The notes under the pieces: generated by a model
Seen by the model: only the letters and a program-made list of their open reading frames with translations
What the model was told of the DNA's origin: nothing
The model's database searches: none
DNA from: Gordius sp. MW1
Lineage: Eukaryota > Nematomorpha > Gordioida > Gordea > Gordiidae
Length of the DNA stretch: 64,000 bases
NCBI GenBank assembly: GCA_964036665.1
Contig: OZ038532.1
Span: 744,001-808,000, forward strand
Direction of reading: 5' to 3'
In this document: in pieces, positions 19,079 to 62,721 of the stretch
Numbering within the stretch: position 1 is the first letter of the stretch
Layout: every line of letters begins with the position of its first letter
Translations under genes and position numbers: made by a program

Positions 19079-20298
19079 ATTTCAAAGGATTGGTATTACA
19101 TAATTATATTATCACTTGTGCATATTCTATCTGTTGCAATACTTTATAATAATATTAGGGAAACAGGCTTCTAAGGCCCCGATGTTTGCCCGTTCGAAAT
19201 CAACCTGTGCATAGTTTGGGGCGAAAACTAGCTGCAAAGCACAAATCTGAATAAATTTCCTAAACATTTTCTTATATGTATCTTCTGTTTTATCAGGCAG
19301 AAGTGTATATACTACTGGAACCATATGCTCCCGGTAATAGGAATGAATGGTATAAATCTAAAAACAACGTTACGGATATTTTATAAAAATGTAAATACTT
19401 GAGTAAAATGTTGGGGGCAACATTTAAACGTACCGTCATAATAAATATTTTTAGATTCACACATTATCTTTAACAGGTGAGCTGTCCCAAAAATAAAAAT
19501 CCTATTGTCCTCGTTCCACAGCAAAAAGTTATCGCCATATGAGTTTTTAAATGATGGAGCTTAAGGATAATATCGTCATTATCCCTAGGCATGTCGTACC
19601 TCAATGGATCTATTTTTTCAGTTTTTTTACAGACCTTAAAAGTGGGGTGAAGTTGGGATGGCCCCTGAGGTCAGGATTTACCCTAAGCCTCTCCGCTATT
19701 ACTTTGTAATATAATCTGCTGATCCTTTCTTTAGGGTCATTCAAAAGAGATATTGTTATCAATTGTCAATGGAAGGTAGAGAGGCTGGTCCTATAAAAAA
19801 TATATAATTCACAATATATTTAAATACTTTGGAATGTGAGAATAGGTAAGTTTTGGGCAATTGTATGGCTGGTCACAGAGGCTGTTCCTATAAAAAATAT
19901 GTAATTCACAATATATTTAAATACTTTGGAATGTGAGAATAGGTAAGTTTTGGGCACTTGTATGGCTGGTCACAGAGGCTGGTCCTATAAAATATATATA
20001 ATTCACAATATATTTAAATACTTGAGCATGAGATCATAGGTAAGCTTTAGGCAATTGTATGGCTGGTCACAGAGGCTGTTCCTTTAGATGGGGGTGTTGA
20101 TGCTGATAAAGAGCATTTACTTGAATCATGTTGATTTGTAAGAAAAAAGGAACCATTTGACATGGTTCCTTTTCCCTTACAAGTGTAATTTCTACACTTA
20201 TAATATACTTTATGCTCAGTCTCATTAACCTGAGCATATTCATGATTATTATAAATTAAGATTCTTTTTTTCTGTCTTGAGAGTGTCCAGGAGATCAT
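19079..20298 (-). pseudogene. FLYWCH/MULE transposase-like gene, decayed
   Basis: The ATG at 20296-20298 opens a FLYWCH-like zinc finger (LIYNNHEYAQ..., YYKCRNYTCKGKG, QHDSSKC). Two 60-bp exons (19984-19925 and 19887-19828) plus a homologous exon tail follow, separated by 37-bp introns. The downstream frame has DPKERISRLYYKVIAERLRV. The MULE core follows: NRIFIFGTAHLL, YYDGT, an intron of about 70 bp, then IYTIHSYYREHMVPVVYTLL and DFERANIGALEACFPN. MULE transposases show FGT..L, DGTF and DFE in this order. Decay is seen as a TAA where sister exon copies have CAA, frameshifts near 19520 and 19760, and a missing C-terminus. Terminal repeats were not found. Confidence 0.75.
19790..20085 (-). repeat. 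Three tandem 97-bp units, each an exon plus a short intron
   Basis: On the minus strand each unit consists of TATAG, a 60-bp exon starting GAMCAGCCTCTGTGACCAGC, a GTATTT donor and a 37-bp AT-rich intron. The exon is phase 1 at both ends, so added copies keep the frame. The copy fused to the FLYWCH exon has TAA where the other two have CAA. The fourth acceptor near 19787 starts a diverged exon. Confidence 0.75.
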
Positions 20299-26834: not shown

Positions 26835-28175
26835 ATATGAACTGTTTTAGGGAGACCGGCAAGGAGAGCCAAATGTACAACGCCTTTGTTTTAAGATAAA
26901 ACCAGCCACTAATGAAATATATTTATCTAGCTAGGGATAAGGAAACTGCCATATTCTCTCCTGCTAATCAGTTTTTGTACTTAATTATAATATTTCCATG
27001 AATAAATTTAAAAATCAATTAGTAATTATTAAAATTTATATATTTCTAAAGTTCCAATCGTTAAGGGTAATTTTATAATATTTAATTCCTATTGATATTG
27101 ATTTAAAAAATAACATTTGGTTTTTAAGATTAATATCGTTACAAAAATATACATTTGTTGCATGTTGCGCAAAGCAAGTGACAAGCCTTTGCATCTCAAT
27201 TGTAATAAACAAAACAAATTTAATGTTTAAATTCGATGATATACCCAGTTTATTAAATATTTAGCCCCAAAAAGCTCTGCCTCATATTTTAAAATATAAA
27301 TAATTTGGTGTTTTTACCTATTTAAGTTCCGCTTTATTAACCTATTAAGTTACCTTTCTTCCTTCCTTCATATACAATGCTAGCCATTCGTTAGCTCAAA
27401 ATTGTATTTACTTAACCTATATGTGATCCGCTTCCTATAAATAATGTCCATTTTCGAGAAAAACGGGTCAAACCTTGGACTAATCTATTATTTAGCCATT
27501 AGGTATTTATAGTCAAGGTCGCTAAATGATGATTGTGAAGTAACTGTACTTGTAATTGGTTTAAAAAAAGATTTTAAATGATGAAATTTCATTTTTATAG
27601 TATAATAATTTAATTTATATTTAAAGCATCATATAAGATTTGAAAAAAAGGCTCATGAAGATTGGATTTTTTGGCTTTTGATATTTTATGAAGCTTTCAT
27701 TTAATATTTATTTTGGGAGCTATTTTGATTACTTCTTGGCATATTTAAAAAATTTGTTAAACATAATAAATTGTTTATGTTGTCATATGATATGAAGTGC
27801 TATATTACACAAATTAAATATATTACAAACACTACCATCAATTCTATGTAAATATATATCTTTTTTTCTTTCTATTAATTGAATAAAGAACCTATCTCAT
27901 TCTACTAAAGTTTAGTCTTAATTAAAATGTGAAAAATAGTCTCTAATTAAAATTGCCTATAGATGGCGCTAATTATAAACTTTTAATTTAATTGCGGCAC
28001 TCCTGAGGGGTTATTATTATGTTCTGAATATTATCGTAAACCCGCAATTTATTAACTAATTTTTACTATAATAAAACAAAATAATTATTACCACCATAAT
28101 TATGAGGGTTATTTCTTAAGTACAATAAGAATGGGTTTAATCTAATTTGAGCTATATATATACCTATCTCGCTTA
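26835..28175. other. AT-rich gene-free stretch
   Basis: No ORF with motifs and no recognised repeat up to the ribozyme motif. Confidence 0.4.
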
Positions 28176-28265
28176 GTGTGCGACTAGAAAATTAACTATG
28201 GCATACTGATGAGCTCTAATAAGAGCGAAAACGTTATATGTTTGTTATCATTTTCGAATCACACA
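28176..28265 (+). ncRNA. Type I hammerhead ribozyme motif
   Basis: Self-cleaving RNA motif. The core is complete: CTGATGAG (28206-28213), stem II CTC/GAG with loop TAATAA plus the G-C closing pair, then CGAAA (28226-28230). Helix III is the self-complementary AACGTT (28230-28235), followed by A28236 as the predicted cleavage nucleotide. Helix I pairs GGCATA (28200-28205) with TATGTT (28237-28242), then a 7x7 internal loop, then GAAAAT with ATTTTC and GTGTG with CACAC further out. A loopless palindromic helix III is typical of metazoan type I hammerheads that work as dimers, known from Penelope-like elements, retrozymes and satellites. No reverse transcriptase or second copy is visible nearby. 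Confidence 0.85.
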
Positions 28266-28794
28266 TAGGGTATTTTTATTTAATAATTTGTCTAGTAGAG
28301 TGGGGATTTTAAACATAGATTATTTATAAGCTTAAATGTCAGCAGGTTTAATAGCTAGATGAAAATGATATACTTTTAGAATTCAAGTTCACAAAAATTA
28401 TATTACAAATTAATTAGTTTTACATTGATAGATTAAAAAGAATAACAAAAATGTAAGACTCAAGGTGAGTTATGCTTTATCTCAGAGCCATCTTTTATAA
28501 TTAAAACAGTTTTAATAACGCAAAAAGTTGTAATGACAAAAAAAAAATTAACATAAAATTAAAAAACAGTACTGTAATGTTTATCAATATATTAAGAAGG
28601 AATAACAATTAAGATATTAAAAATTTAATAAGTTTGTCATACTACATTATTAGTGGCCAACCTTAAACTATATTGGGTTAAATTCCGTTTGAAAATTAAG
28701 TTCGCAGGGATATAGTCACATATTATTAAGAATTACAAAGCTGCTATTTATTATTGAATAAAATTAAGCGGCATAAAATATTATAAATAAAAAC
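28266..28794. other. AT-rich stretch downstream of the ribozyme motif
   Basis: No ORF and no second hammerhead copy seen. Might be part of the element that carried the ribozyme, but no boundaries are visible. Confidence 0.35.
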
Positions 28795-29110
28795 AATTCA
28801 TCAGCCTCGTCAATATCCAGCAAGGGCCATTTGTCAGATAAAGAATTATAATTATATTTTGCTATTAAAACGCCGATTTTTTGACGTAAAACAAGCTGGG
28901 TGAGAATTTCCTTAGGGGATCTCTTTCCACTCTATTTAAAAAACGCCAAAAATTTCTTGCCAAAAGCTGAACAGGAAGCTACTATTGGAATAAAGATTTT
29001 AGATTCAGCAATAGGTATTAAAATGTTTTACGATCTTTTGCATAAGATAGTGAGTCTAAATTGTTTTTAAATGGCGTGAAAATATCAACGCAGGTATTGT
29101 TATCCATAAA
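28795..29110 (-). mobile_element. Non-LTR retrotransposon fragment
   Basis: On the minus strand a frame with FIPIVASCSA, FFKESGKRSPKE and IGVLIAKYNYNSLSDKWPLL matches the C-terminal block of the family at 9220-10135. It is shorter and interrupted, and truncated before the RPD motif becomes readable. Confidence 0.7.
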
Positions 29111-47983: not shown

Positions 47984-50900
47984 ATGGCGCTGGTCAAAAT
48001 AGAAGAATTCACAGATCAAGTAGACATAGAAGATTGGCTGTTAGTGTTGGAGAATGCCATGGAAATTGAAGAAGTCGCGCCGGAGAACAAGAAGAAATAT
48101 CTCATAACATTCATTGGCCTCCCTACCCTGAAAAAGTTAAAGCTTAAGGTATATCCGAAACTTATTAATAATTGCACTTTTGATGAATTAGTAATTAATT
48201 TAAAATTATTATTTAAGAGTAAAAATTCTATTTTTTTTTCGAGACTAAGTTTTTTAAGATGTAGAAGAGGTACAGATTCAATTGAGGAGTATGCTCAAAA
48301 ACTTAAGGGGTTAATAACAAAATGCAATTATGATGATGAAGATGAAATGTTAAGGGATGGGTTCTTATAGAATTTAGACAATAGCAGAGTAGAAAATGAA
48401 ATCAGGATCAGGTTTCCAGAAGGTAAAGATGGAGATGAAAAGCTAAAATTCAAAACTGTATATGAATTAGCTATAAGTAAAGAGCAAGGGATGAAGTAGA
48501 GGATAAGGTCATACATAATGATATTAATAAAATTGTAAAAGGTCAAAATAATAACTATAGTGAGCTGATATGTTTTAATTGTAAGAAACAAGGTCACATA
48601 GCTAGGTTTTGTCATTTAAATAAAAATAATTCTTATTATAAATTTAAGAATTTCAATAAGGAAATGAATGGGAATTATTTAAATAGAGGAAATGATAACA
48701 ATTACATTAGATGTATTAAAACTTATAAAATCAATAGAGCTTTGGTTAGAGCAATATTAAATGGGAAACCTTATAATTTTGAGTTTGATACAGCTGCTCA
48801 GGCTACTGTAATAGATAAGCAGACTTGGATAGAGATAGGTCAGCCCGGGTTAACAGAATGTCCTAGCATATTAGGTTATGGAAATTATAATATCAAAACT
48901 TTAGGTAGGTGTTTAGTTAAAGGGCAAATTAATGATAAATGTTTTGACATCTATGTGATAGTAGTCAATGAAGGTGATTTAATATTAGGGTTGCCTGAAA
49001 TTTTAAAATTTGGATTTGAACTGCCAAAAAATATTTATATTCGACAAATTAAGTTAGAAAATTTGATTGATCAATTTCCCAAAGTATTTTCAGAGAAATT
49101 GGGCGTAGTAAACAATTTTTTGGTAGATTTACATTTAAAAACCCCTTATAGGCCTATAAGTTTGCCCCCGCGTAGGGTACCTTTTCCAATGAGGGAGGCC
49201 ATTGAAAAAGAGATTAAAAGATTATTGGAAGAAGATGTAATCGAAAAGGTTAATTCAAACACTGCAATTCAATGGTGCACACCTACCGTAAACCGTTATA
49301 AGAAAGATAAATCAATCAGGATATGTGGAGACTTCAAAGTCACATTAAATGATTATTTGTACGATGTTGGGGATACGTTGCCTACTTTTGAAGATGTTAC
49401 AGCAAAACTGATTGGAGGCAATAAATTTACCGTCATCGATTTAAAAGACGCATTCTTGCAGTTGAAAATGTCTGAACGGAGTGCAAGGTTACTTACAATT
49501 GCAACACACTTGGGATTATATCGTTATCGCAGACTACCATTTGGAATCAAGGTTGCCCCTTTAATATTTCAGAGGTATATAAGCAACCTTTTATATGGAA
49601 TTCCCAACACGGCAGTGTTTATAGATGACATTATAATAACGGGAATAAATGACGAACAACATGTGTCAAATATTAAAGAAGTATTAAAACGTTTTGAAGA
49701 AGTAGGGATAACTACAACCCCGAGTAAAATAAAGTTCCTTCAAGATTCCGTTGTCTACTTAGGTCATAAAATTAGTTCTAAAGGCATTCAACCTACGGAA
49801 GAGAAAATTTTGGCCTTAAGGGACTGCAAAAGACCAACAGACAAGTCTGAACTCAAAGGATTTTTAGGGTTATTGAATTATGTAGGAAGATTTATACCGA
49901 TGCTTCAACCACAATGCGTCACATTACACAACCTTCTAAAAAAGGACTCTAAATGGGAATGGGGAATAGAGGAAGAAAAATGTTTTGATAAATTAAAGAC
50001 CCTAATATCAAAAGAAGATAGTGTGGTTCCTTATTCATTAAATAAACCAATAGTTTTATACACAGATGCATGTGATACAGGACTGGGGGCGGTACTTATG
50101 CACGTGGAGCCTGATGGGAAAGAAAAGCCCATAGCGTATGCATCAAGAGTTTTAACCCCGGCAGAAAAAGAATATTCCACTATTGATAAAGAAGCTTTAG
50201 GTATCATATATGCTGTTAATAAATTCCATCAATACCTATATGGGAGAACATTCGTATTGAGAACAGATCATCGACCTTTACAATATATATTTGGTCGCCA
50301 GGGACATCATCACAATTGCAACTTGCGATTACAAAGATGGAGTACAAAATTAATGGCATACGATTTTAAAGTTGAGTATATATCTGGTGATAGGAACCAA
50401 ATAGCAGATTCATTATCGCGGTTACCTACCCATGTAGATGTTAGTGAAGACATTCACATACACATGATTGAAGATTTAGAATTTGATAGGAAGACGTTGG
50501 TGGAAGGAACAAGGAGGGATGCAAGATTAAATTCTGTTATTGATATGATCCGTTGCAATTGGAGCAAACCTGCCAACGATGCAACTATTCGTAAGTTATT
50601 TTACCCAAAGAAAAATGAATTATCCGTTGAAAATAATTTACTTTACTGGCAAAATCGGTTAGTGATTCCAGAAAATTTAAAGCAAGCTGTGCTCGAGAAT
50701 CTGCACACCGGACATCGGGGGATATCGGGCATGATTGACCTAGCAAAATTTTATTGTTGGTGGCCAAATATTAACGATGATATTGAAAACTTTGTTCACA
50801 GGTGTCAAAGCTGCCAACAAACTCGACCGAATATGGCCGAATCTCCTTTATATTTATGGCCTACTACGGAGGAGCCAATGGACCGTGTACATATCGATTT

Positions 50901-51622
50901 GGCTGGTCCAGTTAACCACAAATATTGTATTAGTAGATGCGTATTCAAAATGGCCAGAAGTAAGGATTTTAAATTCGCTACATTCAGATGGAATTATCAA
51001 GGCGTTGCGGGAATGGTTTGCACGGTTAGGAGTGCCTAGGGTCATAGTCACGGACAATGGGGGACAATTTACGGGACAAGAATTCGCAATTTTCACAAGA
51101 GCAAACGGAATTAAACACGTTCGGACATCCCCATATCACCCAAAATCTAATGGCTTATGTGAAAGATTTATTAAGACTTTGAAAATGCGGTTTTACTCTA
51201 CTTTTAAGACAAATCGAGATGAAGAAAAGTCGATTGCTCAAGTCTTGATGACTTATAGACTGACTCCCCATAATACTACTAGCGTGTCTCCTAGTGAACT
51301 AATGTTCAAAAGAAGAATAAGGTCCTCCTTGGACCAGCTACGTCGATCAGGTAGAGAGATAACAATAGATAATATGTGGAAGCAGAAATATTATCACGAT
51401 AGGAAGGCTTTTTACCGTACCTTTGAGGAAGGAGATAAAGTATGGGTAAAAAATGAAATGGAAAAGGGTTGGCACGCTGGAGTAGTGAATCACAAAAAGA
51501 ATGATTGGTCCTACGATGTTTGGGCAGAAGGGCGAGTAAAGCGGAAGCATGCAGACCAGTTAAGAAGAGCATTGGGGAATGTAACGAACTGGATAGGGGG
51601 TGATGACGAGAGGGAAGTATGA
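47984..51622 (+). pseudogene. Ty3/gypsy gag-pol, lightly disrupted
   Basis: The gag start is at 47984. An in-frame TAG at 48368-48370 interrupts it, and a frameshift near 48490 separates capsid from nucleocapsid. Nucleocapsid has one knuckle CFNCKKQGHIARFC (from 48571). From there one frame runs to 51039: protease EFDTAAQATVID, RT with CGDFK and FIDDI (instead of YxDD), RNase H TDACDTGLGAVL and TDHRPLQY, then integrase zinc finger HTGHRG..C..C. A frameshift near 50915-50925 moves the integrase core (VDAYSKWPE, VTDNGGQFT, NGLCERF) to another frame ending at 51622. Three lesions with nearly identical LTRs suggest decay soon after insertion, or inheritance of a copy mobilised in trans. Confidence 0.9.
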
Positions 51623-57989: not shown

Positions 57990-58570
57990 TTTAGGTTATA
58001 TATAAAATTTGGCCAAAAAAATTTTGATGCTCATTTTGGCCAAAGGTCATTTTTTTGCATTGGTCAGCAGCCAGGACACGGTTAAAATGGATATAAATTC
58101 ATAAGAGTCAAAAAAAATTAAAAAAATTTTTCGAATCACATTTTGGCCAATGGTCATTTTTTTCTATTGGTCAGCAGCCAAGACATGGTAAAAGTGGATA
58201 TAAATTCATAATAGTAAAAAAACGAAAAAAAAATTTCGGTTCACATTTTGGCCAATGGTCATTTTTTTCCTTTGGTCAGCAGCCAGGACACGGTAAAGAT
58301 ATAAGTTCATAATAGTCAAAAAAAAAAAAAAAAAAATTTCGAAGCACATTTTGGCCAATGGTCATTTTATTCCATTGATCAGCAACCAACGGACGGCCAA
58401 AAAGTCATAATAGCAATGGTAGTAACAGGAACAATCATAATAGTCAAAAAAAAACGAAAAAAAAACTTGGATTCACATTTTGGCCAATGGTAATTTTTTT
58501 CATTGGTCAGCACCCAACGGATGGCCAAAAAGTCTTATTATCAATGGTAGTAACAAGAACAATCATAAGA
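57990..58570. repeat. Tandem array of roughly 100-120-bp units with internal hairpin
   Basis: At least five units, each with TTTGGCCAATGGTCAT, a T-run, CCATTGGTCAGCAGCCA and a GGACACGG or GGACGG tail. CCAATGG and CCATTGG form a stem across the T-run. Related single units lie at about 56060, 56220 and 58900. The array leads into the AATTGCATAGCA.TT module at 58759-58785, matching the core-repeat plus hairpin plan of Helentron-like short elements. Confidence 0.7.
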
Positions 58571-58754
58571 GTAAAAAAAACTCCGGGATTCGAACCCAAA
58601 AACTAGTTAAATTAACAAAAATTAAGAGTAAACAACGAGACAAGATATTCTGTGCAAGACAAGACATTCGGTGCAAGACATCAAGACATTCTGTGCAAGA
58701 CAAGACATTCGGTGCAAACAAGACAACACACCGAACAGCGTTAGAAACAAAATG

Positions 58755-59075: not shown

Positions 59076-60099
59076 TAAGGATTTAATGGATGCCTCTCCC
59101 CTTTAGTTATAAATCAAATCAAATTAAAATTATATTCATTAATTTGTGCAAGTTATTGACGTTTGAAAAACTCAAAATCGCTGTTTTTGGCAACTTCGAC
59201 AACAAATATTTCAAAAACTTTAAGTATATGAAAAAATTGAAAGTATATTTGTTTCATCGTGAGAAACTAGCCAAAATTTGCAAACTTGCCGGCGGTTGAT
59301 TTTTCTTGTTGAACCGTGTAATTAAATCAAACGTTTTTGCACAGGTTCATTTTAAGTTTGCTTACAATTGCAGCGTCACGTCTAGATCCCTAAATTAATT
59401 TTTAAATCGTTAATAATAACTTGGCCCGTAAACTTTATTAAAATAGAATTAAAATTGGCATTATTGAAGTTAAGACCCGATTGACTTAGACTTTAGAACC
59501 ACTACTACCATTGGCGTAGTCAGGGGGAGGCGGCTACCCCCTTTAAATTTAAAAATTCTTTGAAATTTATTAAAACCATGGCTAAAATTTAAAAAAATTA
59601 TCATTTTACCTTTCCCTAAATCATTATTTTCCCCCTCTAATTCCATACACCCATGACTACTAACTGGTTTATAGCAGAGTGATCATGACATGAGTAAAAG
59701 TGGTTGCTGCCTTAAAAAATTATTTGTGTCATGTATGTTGTTCTACCTCTCTACTACCATCTATGATAATTCCTGATACAGTTTAATTTAAAAGGGAGAG
59801 GAAAGGGGAAGGAAGTATAGCATCATTTGAAAGTTCTTCCTGAAAGTAAGTAAACTAAATGTTATCTAACAACCCAACTAATCGTCCTACTTCTGTTTCA
59901 ATCAAGTGGGTGACATGAATATATTGCGTGAGAGAGATAAGTGTTTTTAAAAAGGGAAAGTCGTTTTGGTAAGTGCTGATGCATCATTGAAGACTAAATC
60001 AGCTGAGACAACAAGTCTCCTCAAATCAGATATGCTTTGAATCCCTTTCTGAAATTTGTTAACAGATTTGTTATTTGGCCCAAAATTGGGAGGAATTCT
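59076..60099. other. Flank upstream of the GT31 gene
   Basis: Contains a TGGGCGTAG-type short element at about 59512-59658 (TTGGCGTAGTCAGGGGGAGG ... CCCTCTAATTCC). The rest shows no gene. A 69-codon frame at 59090-59299 has no support. Confidence 0.45.
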
Positions 60100-62721
60100 A
60101 TGAATACGAATTTTATTAAACGTATCTTGTATGCTCTCATAACGGGCTTAGGAGCTTTCTTGATGATTATGACTATTCTAGACACTAGATGGTCAGTTTA
60201 TAACATCGAACCGCATTCTATTATCGCAAATTACGTGGATCCTTTCAGGTTCGAAGTGCAGGGGGATGGACCACAAAATTTGCCTTACTATTCCCACGAT
60301 TCCTATTTTCAAATACTCGAAGTGCAAAATGTGAAGCTATTAAACGCCCCACCCGTCTTTTGCCCGATGGGTAGGCAAGTTACTTTAGTGATTGGAATTT
60401 ATTCTAGCCCTAAAGATACTCTCAAAAGACACGTGCTCAGGAAGGAGTGGAGACTTAAAATAAACGCATTTCGAAATATCCTCTCCAAAAACCATTTTGG
60501 CTACGAAACAATTATAACGATTAACAATCAAAATTTGTCCACTTTGGACCGAGCTTTAGTCAATGTAAGTTTACACGAATCGAAATTTATGCTAGACGAT
60601 GTAAAACTACTATTCGTCCTGGGTAAAAATCCCCCTTTGCCCCATCTCAGGGGTGCCGGTCACCAAAGCTTGATTGATTTCGAAGCTCGCACTTTCGGTG
60701 ACATTTTGCAATACGACATTGCGGACACTTACTTAAATCTCCCCTTCAAAACGGGTATTCTTTTTAAATGGGTCGGGGAAAATTGTCCCACAGCCCATTA
60801 CTTGCTTAAAATTGATGATGACGTGGATATTAAACTAGCTCCTCTGCTAAGGCTCCTCTATCTCTACAAATATCACGATAATGCCACTACTATTAAAGTA
60901 GACCCGAAACTTGGGCTTAGCGTTAGACAGCCTCCTTACATATACTGTCACTTGTGGGAATATATGCAGGTATAATTAATTTTATTTTAAAGCTTGACAA
61001 CTAATTTAAGTATTGATTGCGCATATCAAAAAATATGTAGCTAGAGGGATAATCCCATGGGCGTAGCCTGCCCCCCCCCTCTAAATCCAAAAATTTGTGA
61101 AAAAATTTTGAATAATGATCCCTTTGCCCTCCCCTAAATCATAATTGCCCCCCTCTAATTCCAATGCTGGCTACGCCCACGGGTAGCCCTCTCCGATTTG
61201 AAAAATTGTTTAATATTCGTTAAAGTAGGCCTACGGGTTGGCTTTCAAAAGGAATATATTCATCTAAAAAAACCTACCTCCATGGGCATAGCCAGGATTA
61301 AACCTAGATGGGGGCAATAGTGTTTAGGGAGGGGTAAAATGATGATATTTTAAATTTATGCCATAATTATATTAAACTTGTAAGAATTTCTCGATTTAGA
61401 GTGGGGCAGCCATCCCCTGGCTACGCCAATGCCTACCTAAAATTCTGGTGAAGCCCATGCATAATATATCATTTTCCCTCAAATACAAGTAGCAATGTGT
61501 TTTAAAAAAGGGAAGAAAATATATTGCTTCACCTATCCTCAACCGTGAAGTTCATGAGCGTTTTAACTCTTTAGAAGAACAACTCTAATTTTTTTTTTGA
61601 ATCCCGAACCCGGGAATATAAATGTCAACCCAAATTTCCCATTTAAATTAACAAATTATTTAATTATAGAGATCAAGAAATATGATAAATCCAGCTGCTT
61701 TACCAAATTACTATGAATTAGATGTTGTTTTCAAACGAATTTTTTATTTAGAATGTCAAAATGCATGCAGCAAAGTCTATATTTTTTGTCCCCACCCGAT
61801 CGTCGGATTTTGGAAGGCCTGATAAATTTGTTTCAAAGGCTATCTAACGCTTATTTAATATAATGCTATTATGAGCGTAGCCGGGAGGGGGGGCAGGCAG
61901 GAGCGACTGCCCTCCTCTTAATCCAAAAAAATTGTTGAAGTTTATTAAAATTATGGCTAAAATTTCAAAAAATGATGATTTTGCCCCTCCCTTAATCATC
62001 ATTGCCCCCCCCTCTAATCCTAATGCTGGCTACGTCTGTGAATGCAATTATATTTTATTCTTACGTAAATAAAATCCGTAATAATTAATTTAACCCTTTC
62101 ATCTTTTCCATAAATATAACAGACACTTATTACTTTAAACATGGGCGTAGTCAGGGAGGGTCAAATACCCCATTCCTTAAAATCAAAATTTCTTTAAAAT
62201 TTATTAAAATTATGGTTGGATTTTCAGAAAAATCTTTTGCCCCCCCCCCGGTTAAATTTACATCCTGCCTAAGCCCATGTCTTTAGGTAACATTTCTTTT
62301 ATTTTAATATGAATCATATTTTTGAAATCTCATACATAATATACAGGTAGTAAGGGATGCGAATCACAAAAATTTCGTGAATAAAACGCAATACCCATTT
62401 TCTCATTATCCCCAATACTGTAGCGGTTGGGCCTATATCCTGAGCCCTTTGGTGGCCCTCAAAATATACAGACTAACCTTAGATTCTAGGTCTGTGCCCA
62501 ATGAAGATGCTTTTTGGACTGGCCTAGTTGCACCTAGTGCACACGTCAGCATAAGAGCAATTAACGAATTTTATGGTCATCCTGGTGGATATTTATCTGG
62601 TCCGGCTTTCCATAAATCCCTACCGTACGATTCTGTGCTGGAGAAATTTAGAAAGCTTAATCTTACCCGTGCTGGAGATTTTATCTTCAGATCACCGAGA
62701 AAAAAACCTTTCCCAAGCTGA
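60100..62721 (+). CDS. Beta-1,3-galactosyltransferase-like enzyme (GT31)
   Basis: Predicted Golgi type II membrane glycosyltransferase that would transfer galactose or GlcNAc in beta-1,3 linkage. Exons 60100-60969 and 62347-62721 join in phase 0 across a 1,377-bp intron, giving 414 residues. The start is the ATG at 60100; an ATG at 60032 runs straight into TGA. A short cytosolic tail and hydrophobic anchor (about 8-28) are followed by a stem. GT31 landmarks: GIYSSPKDTLKRHVLRKEWR, a VLLFVLG-like strand, GDILQYDIADTYLNLPFKT, the DDDVD metal motif (239-243), YP.YCSGWAYILSP (YCSG 314-317) and NEDAFWTG (342-348), equivalent to the E/D-D-V-x-x-G motif. All catalytic landmarks are present. Donor/acceptor specificity cannot be read from the sequence. 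Confidence 0.9.
61046..61182. mobile_element. TGGGCGTAG-type short element, intron copy 1
   Basis: CCATGGGCGTAGCC ... GCTGGCTACGCCCACGG with two C-runs between. Inside the GT31 intron. Confidence 0.65.
61280..61440. mobile_element. TGGGCGTAG-type short element, intron copy 2, inverted
   Basis: CCATGGGCATAGCCAGGATT ... CCCTGGCTACGCCAATG. The G-runs are on the plus strand, so orientation is opposite to copy 1. Confidence 0.65.
61870..62042. mobile_element. TGGGCGTAG-type short element, intron copy 3
   Basis: ATGAGCGTAGCCGGGAGGGG ... AATGCTGGCTACGTCTGTG, with internal TTTGCCCCTCCC and TTGCCCCCCCCT. Confidence 0.6.
62140..62281. mobile_element. TGGGCGTAG-type short element, intron copy 4
   Basis: CATGGGCGTAGTCAGGGAGG ... 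CATCCTGCCTAAGCCCATG with a C10 run. It lies 65 bp before the acceptor of exon 2. Confidence 0.6.

What the first reader, a model, noticed from the sequence alone, without database searches (positions are those of the whole stretch)
28176..28265. Complete hammerhead ribozyme with a palindromic, loopless helix III
All core nucleotides are present in the right order (CTGATGAG, G-CTC/GAG-C stem II, GAAA). Helix I closes through GGCATA/TATGTT plus an outer GAAAAT/ATTTTC. Helix III is the self-complementary AACGTT with no loop, followed by A as the cleavage base. Such a helix III cannot fold stably in a monomer but can in a dimer, a feature known from metazoan type I hammerheads of retrozymes, satellites and Penelope-like elements. 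No mobile-element protein is visible nearby, so this may be a solitary or unrecognised small element.
Basis: partly seen in the sequence, partly recalled or inferred. Interest (0 to 1): 0.85.

Follow-up and report, generated by a model that had tools for sequence, protein, structure and literature searches.

The report
Retrozyme repeat bearing Penelope-type insertion marks
The window holds a worn copy of a small repeat that carries a self-cutting RNA, and sister copies in the same genome end in the way known from Penelope retroelements, which hints at what moves these repeats.

Summary
The hammerhead is real: core, helix I (inner and outer), helix II and the AACGTT|A palindrome stand where stated. 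A strict motif finds it once in the window, never in 200 shuffles; it stays below Rfam's cut-off (HH9, 25.1 vs 52 bits). It is not solitary: it lies in a truncated copy (27933-28263) of a 367-bp repeat. The genome holds 247 exact cores, reversed control 0; at least 58 are in one array. A second family (375-bp unit) shares mainly the ribozyme block. Unit size, no ORF, tandem and dispersed copies and long TSDs fit metazoan non-LTR retrozymes. New here: many insertions have head-to-head arms whose outer 3' ends fall at two sites 42 nt apart (family A 42 of 63 ends, 3.6 expected; 5' ends 1 of 25). Where both ends fit, 15 of 16 insertions have one of each. The literature calls this 'tail' signature unique to Penelope-like elements (PLEs); five of five PLE insertions read here show it. 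46 of 61 arms run past the cleavage site, so the template was circular or multimeric. Best reading: a retrozyme mobilised in trans by PLE machinery. Cleavage, circles and transposition were not tested.

The parts
27933..28263 (+). Truncated copy of retrozyme family A (unit positions 1-331 of 367); a decayed stretch may reach about 28285
   Evidence: 88.6% identity to the L009 unit; left limit also; flank alignments do not exceed shuffled scores
27990..28049 (+). Possible stem-loop AATTGCGG / CCGCAATT enclosing the proximal end site e1
   Evidence: sequence; fold of the family A unit, pairs around e1 reached by 5 of 300 shuffles
28033..28033 (+). Position matching recurrent 3' end e1 (unit ~104); internal, not an end in this copy
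   Evidence: end mapping in sister copies, projected by hand on the sequence
28074..28074 (+). Position matching recurrent 3' end e2 (unit ~146); e1 to e2 is the 'tail'
   Evidence: end mapping in sister copies, projected by hand on the sequence
28187..28192 (+). Hammerhead outer helix I, 5' strand (pairs 28250-28255)
   Evidence: 99.1% of cells pair over 37 distinct rows
28200..28242 (+). Type I hammerhead core: inner helix I, CTGATGA, helix II, GAA, AACGTT palindrome, predicted cleavage after A28236
28250..28255 (+). Hammerhead outer helix I, 3' strand

Best explanation
The feature is the ribozyme of a metazoan non-LTR retrozyme. Multimeric transcripts of the repeat self-cleave (perhaps as dimers joined through AACGUU), monomers are ligated into circles, and a Penelope-like RT-endonuclease encoded elsewhere in the genome uses the circle as template. 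It makes a staggered cut; the two 3' ends prime reverse transcription at two neighbouring internal sites (e1, e2); both cDNAs run round the circle and are joined head to head, leaving a TSD of about 12-17 bp. Shown here: copies, units, two end sites, e1+e2 pairing, head-to-head arms, TSDs, arms crossing the cleavage site, the same anatomy in PLE insertions of this genome. Inferred: cleavage, circularity, the PLE as the enzyme, dual priming. The window copy is a truncated remnant whose own ends are at neither site.
For: Family A 3' ends in two windows of 11 and 10 nt: 42 of 63 (3.6 expected), 5' ends 1 of 25; family B 18 of 26 (2.0 expected), 5' ends 1 of 8. Family A loci fetched after the sites had been seen: 17 of 24. 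Of 61 insertions 28 are two-armed, all head-to-head and none tail-to-tail; 16 of the 28 have both ends classified, 15 of these e1+e2. TSD score of 10 or more in 13 of 28 two-armed, 2 of 33 others, 0.7% of 3660 mismatched flank pairs. 46 of 61 arms run more than 10 nt past the cleavage site, 1 of 61 ends within 5 nt of it, 25 of 61 exceed one unit. PLEs of the same genome (GIY-YIG, YVDD motif, 913-codon frame) lie in head-to-head tandem arrays; in 5 of 5 insertions read, one arm has an extra tail, with TSD scores of 11-15. PMC11167929 (parts 1-2 of 4 read): a PLE protein starts reverse transcription at two adjacent internal sites that equal the genomic tail, extends both DNA strands and prefers AT-rich targets.
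Against: No sequence similarity beyond chance between the family A unit and the six PLE loci read (best E 0.62), so the PLE responsible is not named. Tail length differs (42-58 nt here, about 20-32 nt in the PLEs). 12 of 28 two-armed insertions have at least one end outside the windows; 21 of 63 family A ends miss. The five PLE insertions were picked for being head-to-head. Family B windows were set on the same data. The predicted stem around e1 beats shuffles only in family A (5 of 300); in B and three PLE families 34 to 172 of 300 shuffles do as well. Covariation in the ribozyme is weak. In PMC11167929 ribozyme mutants did not change insertion in vitro.
Confidence: 0.8

Rival explanations
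1. Retrozyme moved by LINE machinery: one fixed 3' end, head-to-head arms by twin priming.
For: Literature lists LINEs as possible helpers (PMC7229834 Discussion; PMC11722881 passages); the TSD length would also fit (recalled).
Against: Two alternative 3' ends, one of each per insertion in 15 of 16 classified; same signature in GIY-YIG PLEs of this genome.
Confidence: 0.08
2. Satellite DNA spread by recombination or excised DNA circles; the hammerhead is a passenger.
For: A long array exists on contig C1 and holds at least 58 of the 247 exact cores.
Against: Dispersed copies have recurrent 3' ends, scattered 5' ends and TSDs, which recombination does not predict. It may still explain the array.
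Confidence: 0.05
3. A terminal-inverted-repeat DNA transposon whose arms happen to carry a hammerhead.
For: Head-to-head inverted arms and TSDs.
Against: The two ends differ in position, arms vary in length, and 25 of 61 exceed one unit.
Confidence: 0.02
4. Template is an uncleaved linear multimer, not a circle; the ribozyme is dispensable for transposition (a variant of the best explanation, not exclusive of PLE mobilisation).
For: Arms cross the cleavage site (46 of 61); ribozyme mutants did not affect PLE insertion in vitro (PMC11167929).
Against: Core kept in 59 of 79 copies and palindrome in 54 of those 59; two families share mainly the ribozyme block; animal retrozymes studied make abundant circles (PMC7229834).
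Confidence: 0.25

Closest known systems
Metazoan non-LTR retrozymes (coral, mussel, axolotl; PMC7229834)
   Same: Type I hammerhead, units of 170-400 bp in tandem, multicopy, low GC, TSDs longer than 4 bp when present, PLEs in the same genome
   Different: Here insertion ends are mapped: two recurrent 3' sites, mostly one of each per insertion, head-to-head arms. The words 'inverted' and 'tail' do not occur in that paper's main text. Helix III is of the amphibian kind (one pair and a palindromic tetraloop), shorter than that paper calls typical of invertebrates.
Penelope-like elements with GIY-YIG endonuclease (PMC11167929, PMC3846280)
   Same: Head-to-head arms, tail on one arm, TSD, tandem units, a hammerhead motif
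   Different: The retrozyme unit codes for no protein and shows no similarity to the PLEs read; its hammerhead has full helices I and II with outer helix I
pDo500 satellite of Dolichopoda cave crickets (PMC2837043; passages)
   Same: Hammerhead inside a repeated DNA family of an arthropod
   Different: Satellite whose stem III folds within one molecule even in the double form
Newt and axolotl satellite hammerhead (HHR_Amex1, PMC7229834)
   Same: Single-pair helix III capped by a palindromic tetraloop; dimers cleave far better there
   Different: Repeat body not compared; dimer requirement not tested here

Membership tests
Metazoan non-LTR retrozyme | Type I hammerhead with all core bases | tested here: met
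   Rfam gathering score not reached
Metazoan non-LTR retrozyme | Tandem units of about 170-400 bp | tested here: met
   367 and 375 bp; the window copy itself is a fragment
Metazoan non-LTR retrozyme | Multicopy, dispersed | tested here: met
   247 exact cores, reversed control 0, at least 58 of them in one array
Metazoan non-LTR retrozyme | No coding capacity, low GC | tested here: met
   longest stop-free run 57 codons, GC 0.31-0.32
Metazoan non-LTR retrozyme | TSD longer than 4 bp when present | tested here: met
   15 of 61 insertions with score 10 or more
Metazoan non-LTR retrozyme | No LTR, primer-binding site or polypurine tract | not tested
   no dedicated search made
Metazoan non-LTR retrozyme | Self-cleaves and accumulates as circular RNA | not testable with these tools
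   needs transcription assay and northern blot
PLE-mobilised element (signature) | Two adjacent 3' end sites, tail on one of two head-to-head arms | tested here: met
   15 of 16 two-armed insertions with both ends classified; 12 further two-armed have an unclassified end
PLE-mobilised element (signature) | Stem-loop at the reverse-transcription start | tested here: inconclusive
   predicted in families A and B and three PLE families; better than shuffles only in A
Penelope-like element | ORF with RT and GIY-YIG domains | tested here: not met
   retrozyme units lack ORFs

The most novel reading that the evidence does not exclude
Animal retrozymes are to PLEs what SINEs are to LINEs: their RNA circle imitates the PLE start region, and a PLE dimer loads both ends of one staggered cut onto two neighbouring sites of one circle, so each insertion carries one e1 and one e2 arm. 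The ribozyme's job is to supply the circle.
Probability: 0.45. Interest if true: 0.78.

Novelty: new member of a known kind. Interest (0 to 1): 0.6.

Why it matters
Which enzyme moves animal retrozymes was left open in 2020 and 2024 papers (PLEs 'strong candidate' in PMC7229834; LINEs or PLEs in PMC11722881). The insertion ends found here give a genomic test that can be repeated in other animals with retrozymes, and they add that one insertion mostly uses both start sites. Four searches of the held library on this point (13 of 13 papers listed, 20 of 40, 20 of 60, 2 of 2) listed no paper that I recognised, from titles and the passages read, as reporting PLE-type ends on retrozymes; unlisted and subscription papers were not seen.

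Tried and rejected
Rfam at gathering level: nothing. Minimum-energy fold does not show the hammerhead. Compensatory changes: 2 pairs with a change on both sides, reached by 26 of 500 shuffles; not decisive, and 47 of 79 copies, mostly with intact cores, plus the window were aligned. Sequence similarity of the family A unit to PLE loci: none beyond chance. Extension of the window copy beyond 27933-28263: plus-strand flank scores are 108 (left) and 127 (right); the best of 30 shuffles, made of the right flank only, is 148. Stem-loop at e1 as a shared recognition element: predicted in five families, but pairs around e1 are reached by 5 (A), 39 (B), 172 (PLE1), 57 (PLE2) and 34 (PLE3) of 300 shuffles, so only A stands out; I lowered two odds for this (best explanation to 0.80, novel case to 0.45). 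HH9 model over the genome: 5 matches, none over cut-off, so a poor census tool. Family A 3' ends at unit 358-361 were taken as nesting sites of another repeat in L011 and L023; in L019, L028, L049 and L074 they stay counted as misses. Two papers on PLE hammerheads (PMC5785218, PMC4209133) are not held, so nothing here rests on their text.

Rows dropped before the counts: L001 (the window copy), L004, L005, L006 (same loci as L018, L046, L016), L050 (near-copy of L051), L071 and L072 (array borders), L029-L034 (PLEs), and clusters under 150 bp. Pairs that look like duplicates by their flanks, L041/L047 and L028/L049, stayed; without L047 and L049, before the nested corrections, family A gives 40 of 62. 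In one search I moved the right ends of L011 and L023 by hand past a nested repeat. The largest score among the mismatched flank pairs is 15. The later family A loci (17 of 24) were not blind: match coordinates of 16 of the 18 loci behind these ends had been listed before I fetched them. In one search L032 scored 7, inside the null range, because its TSD lies within the arm; with a wider inner window it scores 12 and L030 drops to 8 because its TSD is then cut off.

Full report
1. The observation. Core CTGATGA 28206-28212, helix II 28213-28226, GAA 28227-28229, the palindrome AACGTT 28230-28235 and the cleavage base A28236 are followed by helix I, which has an inner part (GGCATA/TATGTT, two G-U pairs) and an outer part (GAAAAT/ATTTTC). 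A strict motif search gives one hit in the window on both strands and none in 200 dinucleotide shuffles. Rfam's closest model, HH9, scores 25.1 bits against a gathering score of 52; no Rfam family reaches gathering level in the window.

2. It is a repeat. A search of the window's own assembly (G000, 211.8 Mb, 12 contigs) with 101 bases around the ribozyme scored 40 of 813 candidates; apart from the window itself they are 94-97% identical. Left of the ribozyme the similarity to other copies begins at about window 27933. To the right it ends near 28263; a query from 28250 on finds a different repeat. In other loci the same sequence recurs head to tail every 367 bp (L009). An exact core pattern that includes the palindrome occurs 247 times (151 forward, 96 reverse) against 0 for the reversed control; only the first 100 places are listed, and 58 of these lie in one array at C1:7848318-7874083. 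The window copy is a fragment with unit positions 1-331; neither of its ends is at a recurrent end site, so it says nothing itself about insertion.

3. Two families, one ribozyme. Sixteen loci picked for the loop variant CCAATA, and the array borders, belong to a second family with a unit of about 375 bp (L071 552-926). Against the family A unit they match mainly over about 177 nt around the ribozyme (pieces of 77-90% identity). Of 79 near-complete ribozyme copies in the fetched loci, 59 have an intact core by my pattern and 54 of those have AACGTT followed by A. In an alignment of 48 copies (47 of these 79 and the window, mostly with intact cores; 37 distinct rows) 97.6% of cells pair, against 29-55% when the partners are slid, but changes on both sides are few. 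The longest stop-free run in either unit is 57 codons. The palindromic 6-mer forms a duplex of -3.5 kcal/mol with itself, which would fit a dimeric ribozyme of the newt/axolotl kind described in PMC7229834 (Results parts 1-2 of 3 and Discussion read).

4. The ends. Copies were read from 20 loci of 9.9 kb, 20 of about 1 kb and 20 of 1.1-1.9 kb, besides the eight that came; dropped rows are told in Tried and rejected. Of 61 insertions 28 are two-armed, all with the arms pointing away from each other (head to head), each arm ending outside with its 3' end; none is tail to tail. In family A the 3' ends cluster at unit 100-110 (e1...CTGATTATTA|) and 140-149 (e2...CATATAATAA|): 42 of 63, where 3.6 are expected for a uniform spread, while 5' ends show 1 of 25. 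The sites were noticed on the first loci; on family A loci fetched later 17 of 24 fall in the windows. Family B has its own pair, b258-264 and b299-320: 18 of 26 (2.0 expected), 5' ends 1 of 8 (windows chosen on these data). Of the 28 two-armed insertions 16 have both ends classified and 15 of these combine one e1 with one e2 (A 10 of 11, B 5 of 5); 12 have at least one end elsewhere. Matching stretches at the two junctions score 10 or more in 13 of 28 two-armed insertions (11 of the 15 e1+e2 ones), 2 of 33 others, and 0.7% of 3660 mismatched flank pairs, whose largest score is 15. Examples: ATAAAATGGAGTAA (L022), ATAAGAGATTTATTA (L035), AACAGATATTATATTT (L055).

5. The template. If the enzyme had copied ribozyme-cleaved linear monomers, arms should stop at the cleavage site. 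Of 61 arms (aligned pieces whose 3' end lies in an end window) 46 run more than 10 nt past it (A 32 of 43, B 14 of 18), 25 are longer than one unit, and 1 ends within 5 nt of it. So for most arms the template was circular or an uncut multimer.

6. The PLEs of the same genome. A GIY-YIG search gave 118 matches, many in head-to-head tandem arrays such as C5:441910(-)...462153(+) and C8:28243286(-)...28278459(+) with a spacing near 2957 bp. One frame of 913 codons (L029) has GIY-YIG at 810-892 and the motif YVDD, and matches reverse transcriptases weakly. Five insertions, chosen for their short head-to-head spacing, were read. In L030, L031, L033 and L034 the left arm runs 20-32 nt beyond the inverted homology while the right does not, with TSD scores of 11-15 (mismatched pairs 6-10). 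In L032 the right arm has the extra stretch, with a 12-base exact TSD (one search had missed it). L030, L031 and L034 carry hammerhead-like motifs that overlap an ATG, with degenerate forms in L029 and L032. A stem around e1 is predicted in retrozyme families A and B and in three PLE families, but only in A is it more than shuffles give, so this resemblance is a lead, not evidence.

7. Meaning. [quoted passage not shown] PMC3846280 (passages) describes a 31-bp tail optionally present on one of two inverted pseudo-LTRs, a mostly head-to-head arrangement, and TSDs of 8-10 bp. The retrozymes here show this kind of end. PMC7229834 names PLEs a strong candidate for moving animal retrozymes; its main text does not contain the words 'inverted' or 'tail'. 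So the best reading is a retrozyme moved in trans by a PLE. That the two ends of one cut each take one of the two sites on one RNA is my inference from the 15 of 16 pairing.

8. Limits. No cleavage, circle or transposition was measured. No PLE with sequence resembling the retrozyme was found, but only six loci out of 118 matches were read. Statistics treat insertions as independent, and two pairs of likely duplicates remained.

Noticed in passing
window 28758-29096: A different dispersed repeat beside the retrozyme: 39 other scored copies at 77-80% identity, several on C1 and C3 about 5 kb apart.
   Followed up: no
window 48664-51622: Ty3/Gypsy-like polyprotein in two overlapping frames: RT, RNase H, integrase, and an aspartyl protease below its cut-off.
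   Followed up: no
window 60037-60975: ORF with a galactosyltransferase domain (PF01762), perhaps a host gene exon.
   Followed up: no
window 19780-20083 and 58015-58580: Tandem repeats of a 97-bp unit (3.1 copies) and of 107-128 bp units.
   Followed up: no
G000 C1:7848318-7874083 (borders in L071, L072): Array of family B units over about 26 kb, 58 listed exact cores, unit steps between about 341 and 375 bp.
   Followed up: partly
L011 5267/8150 and L023 5141/6308: Another repeat (starting AGAG..TGCACGG) sits inside two retrozyme copies at the same unit position (~353-361), perhaps a preferred site.
   Followed up: partly
L030 1639-1778: Rfam microRNA models MIR6426 (60 bits, gathering 96) and MIR946 (46.6, gathering 190) match the palindromic junction of a PLE insertion, below cut-off; such entries may derive from PLE-like palindromes.
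   Followed up: no
G000 C4:23467463 and C4:23582220: The two best GIY-YIG matches (54 bits, next 35.6) stand apart from the PLE group and may be another gene or element.
   Followed up: no
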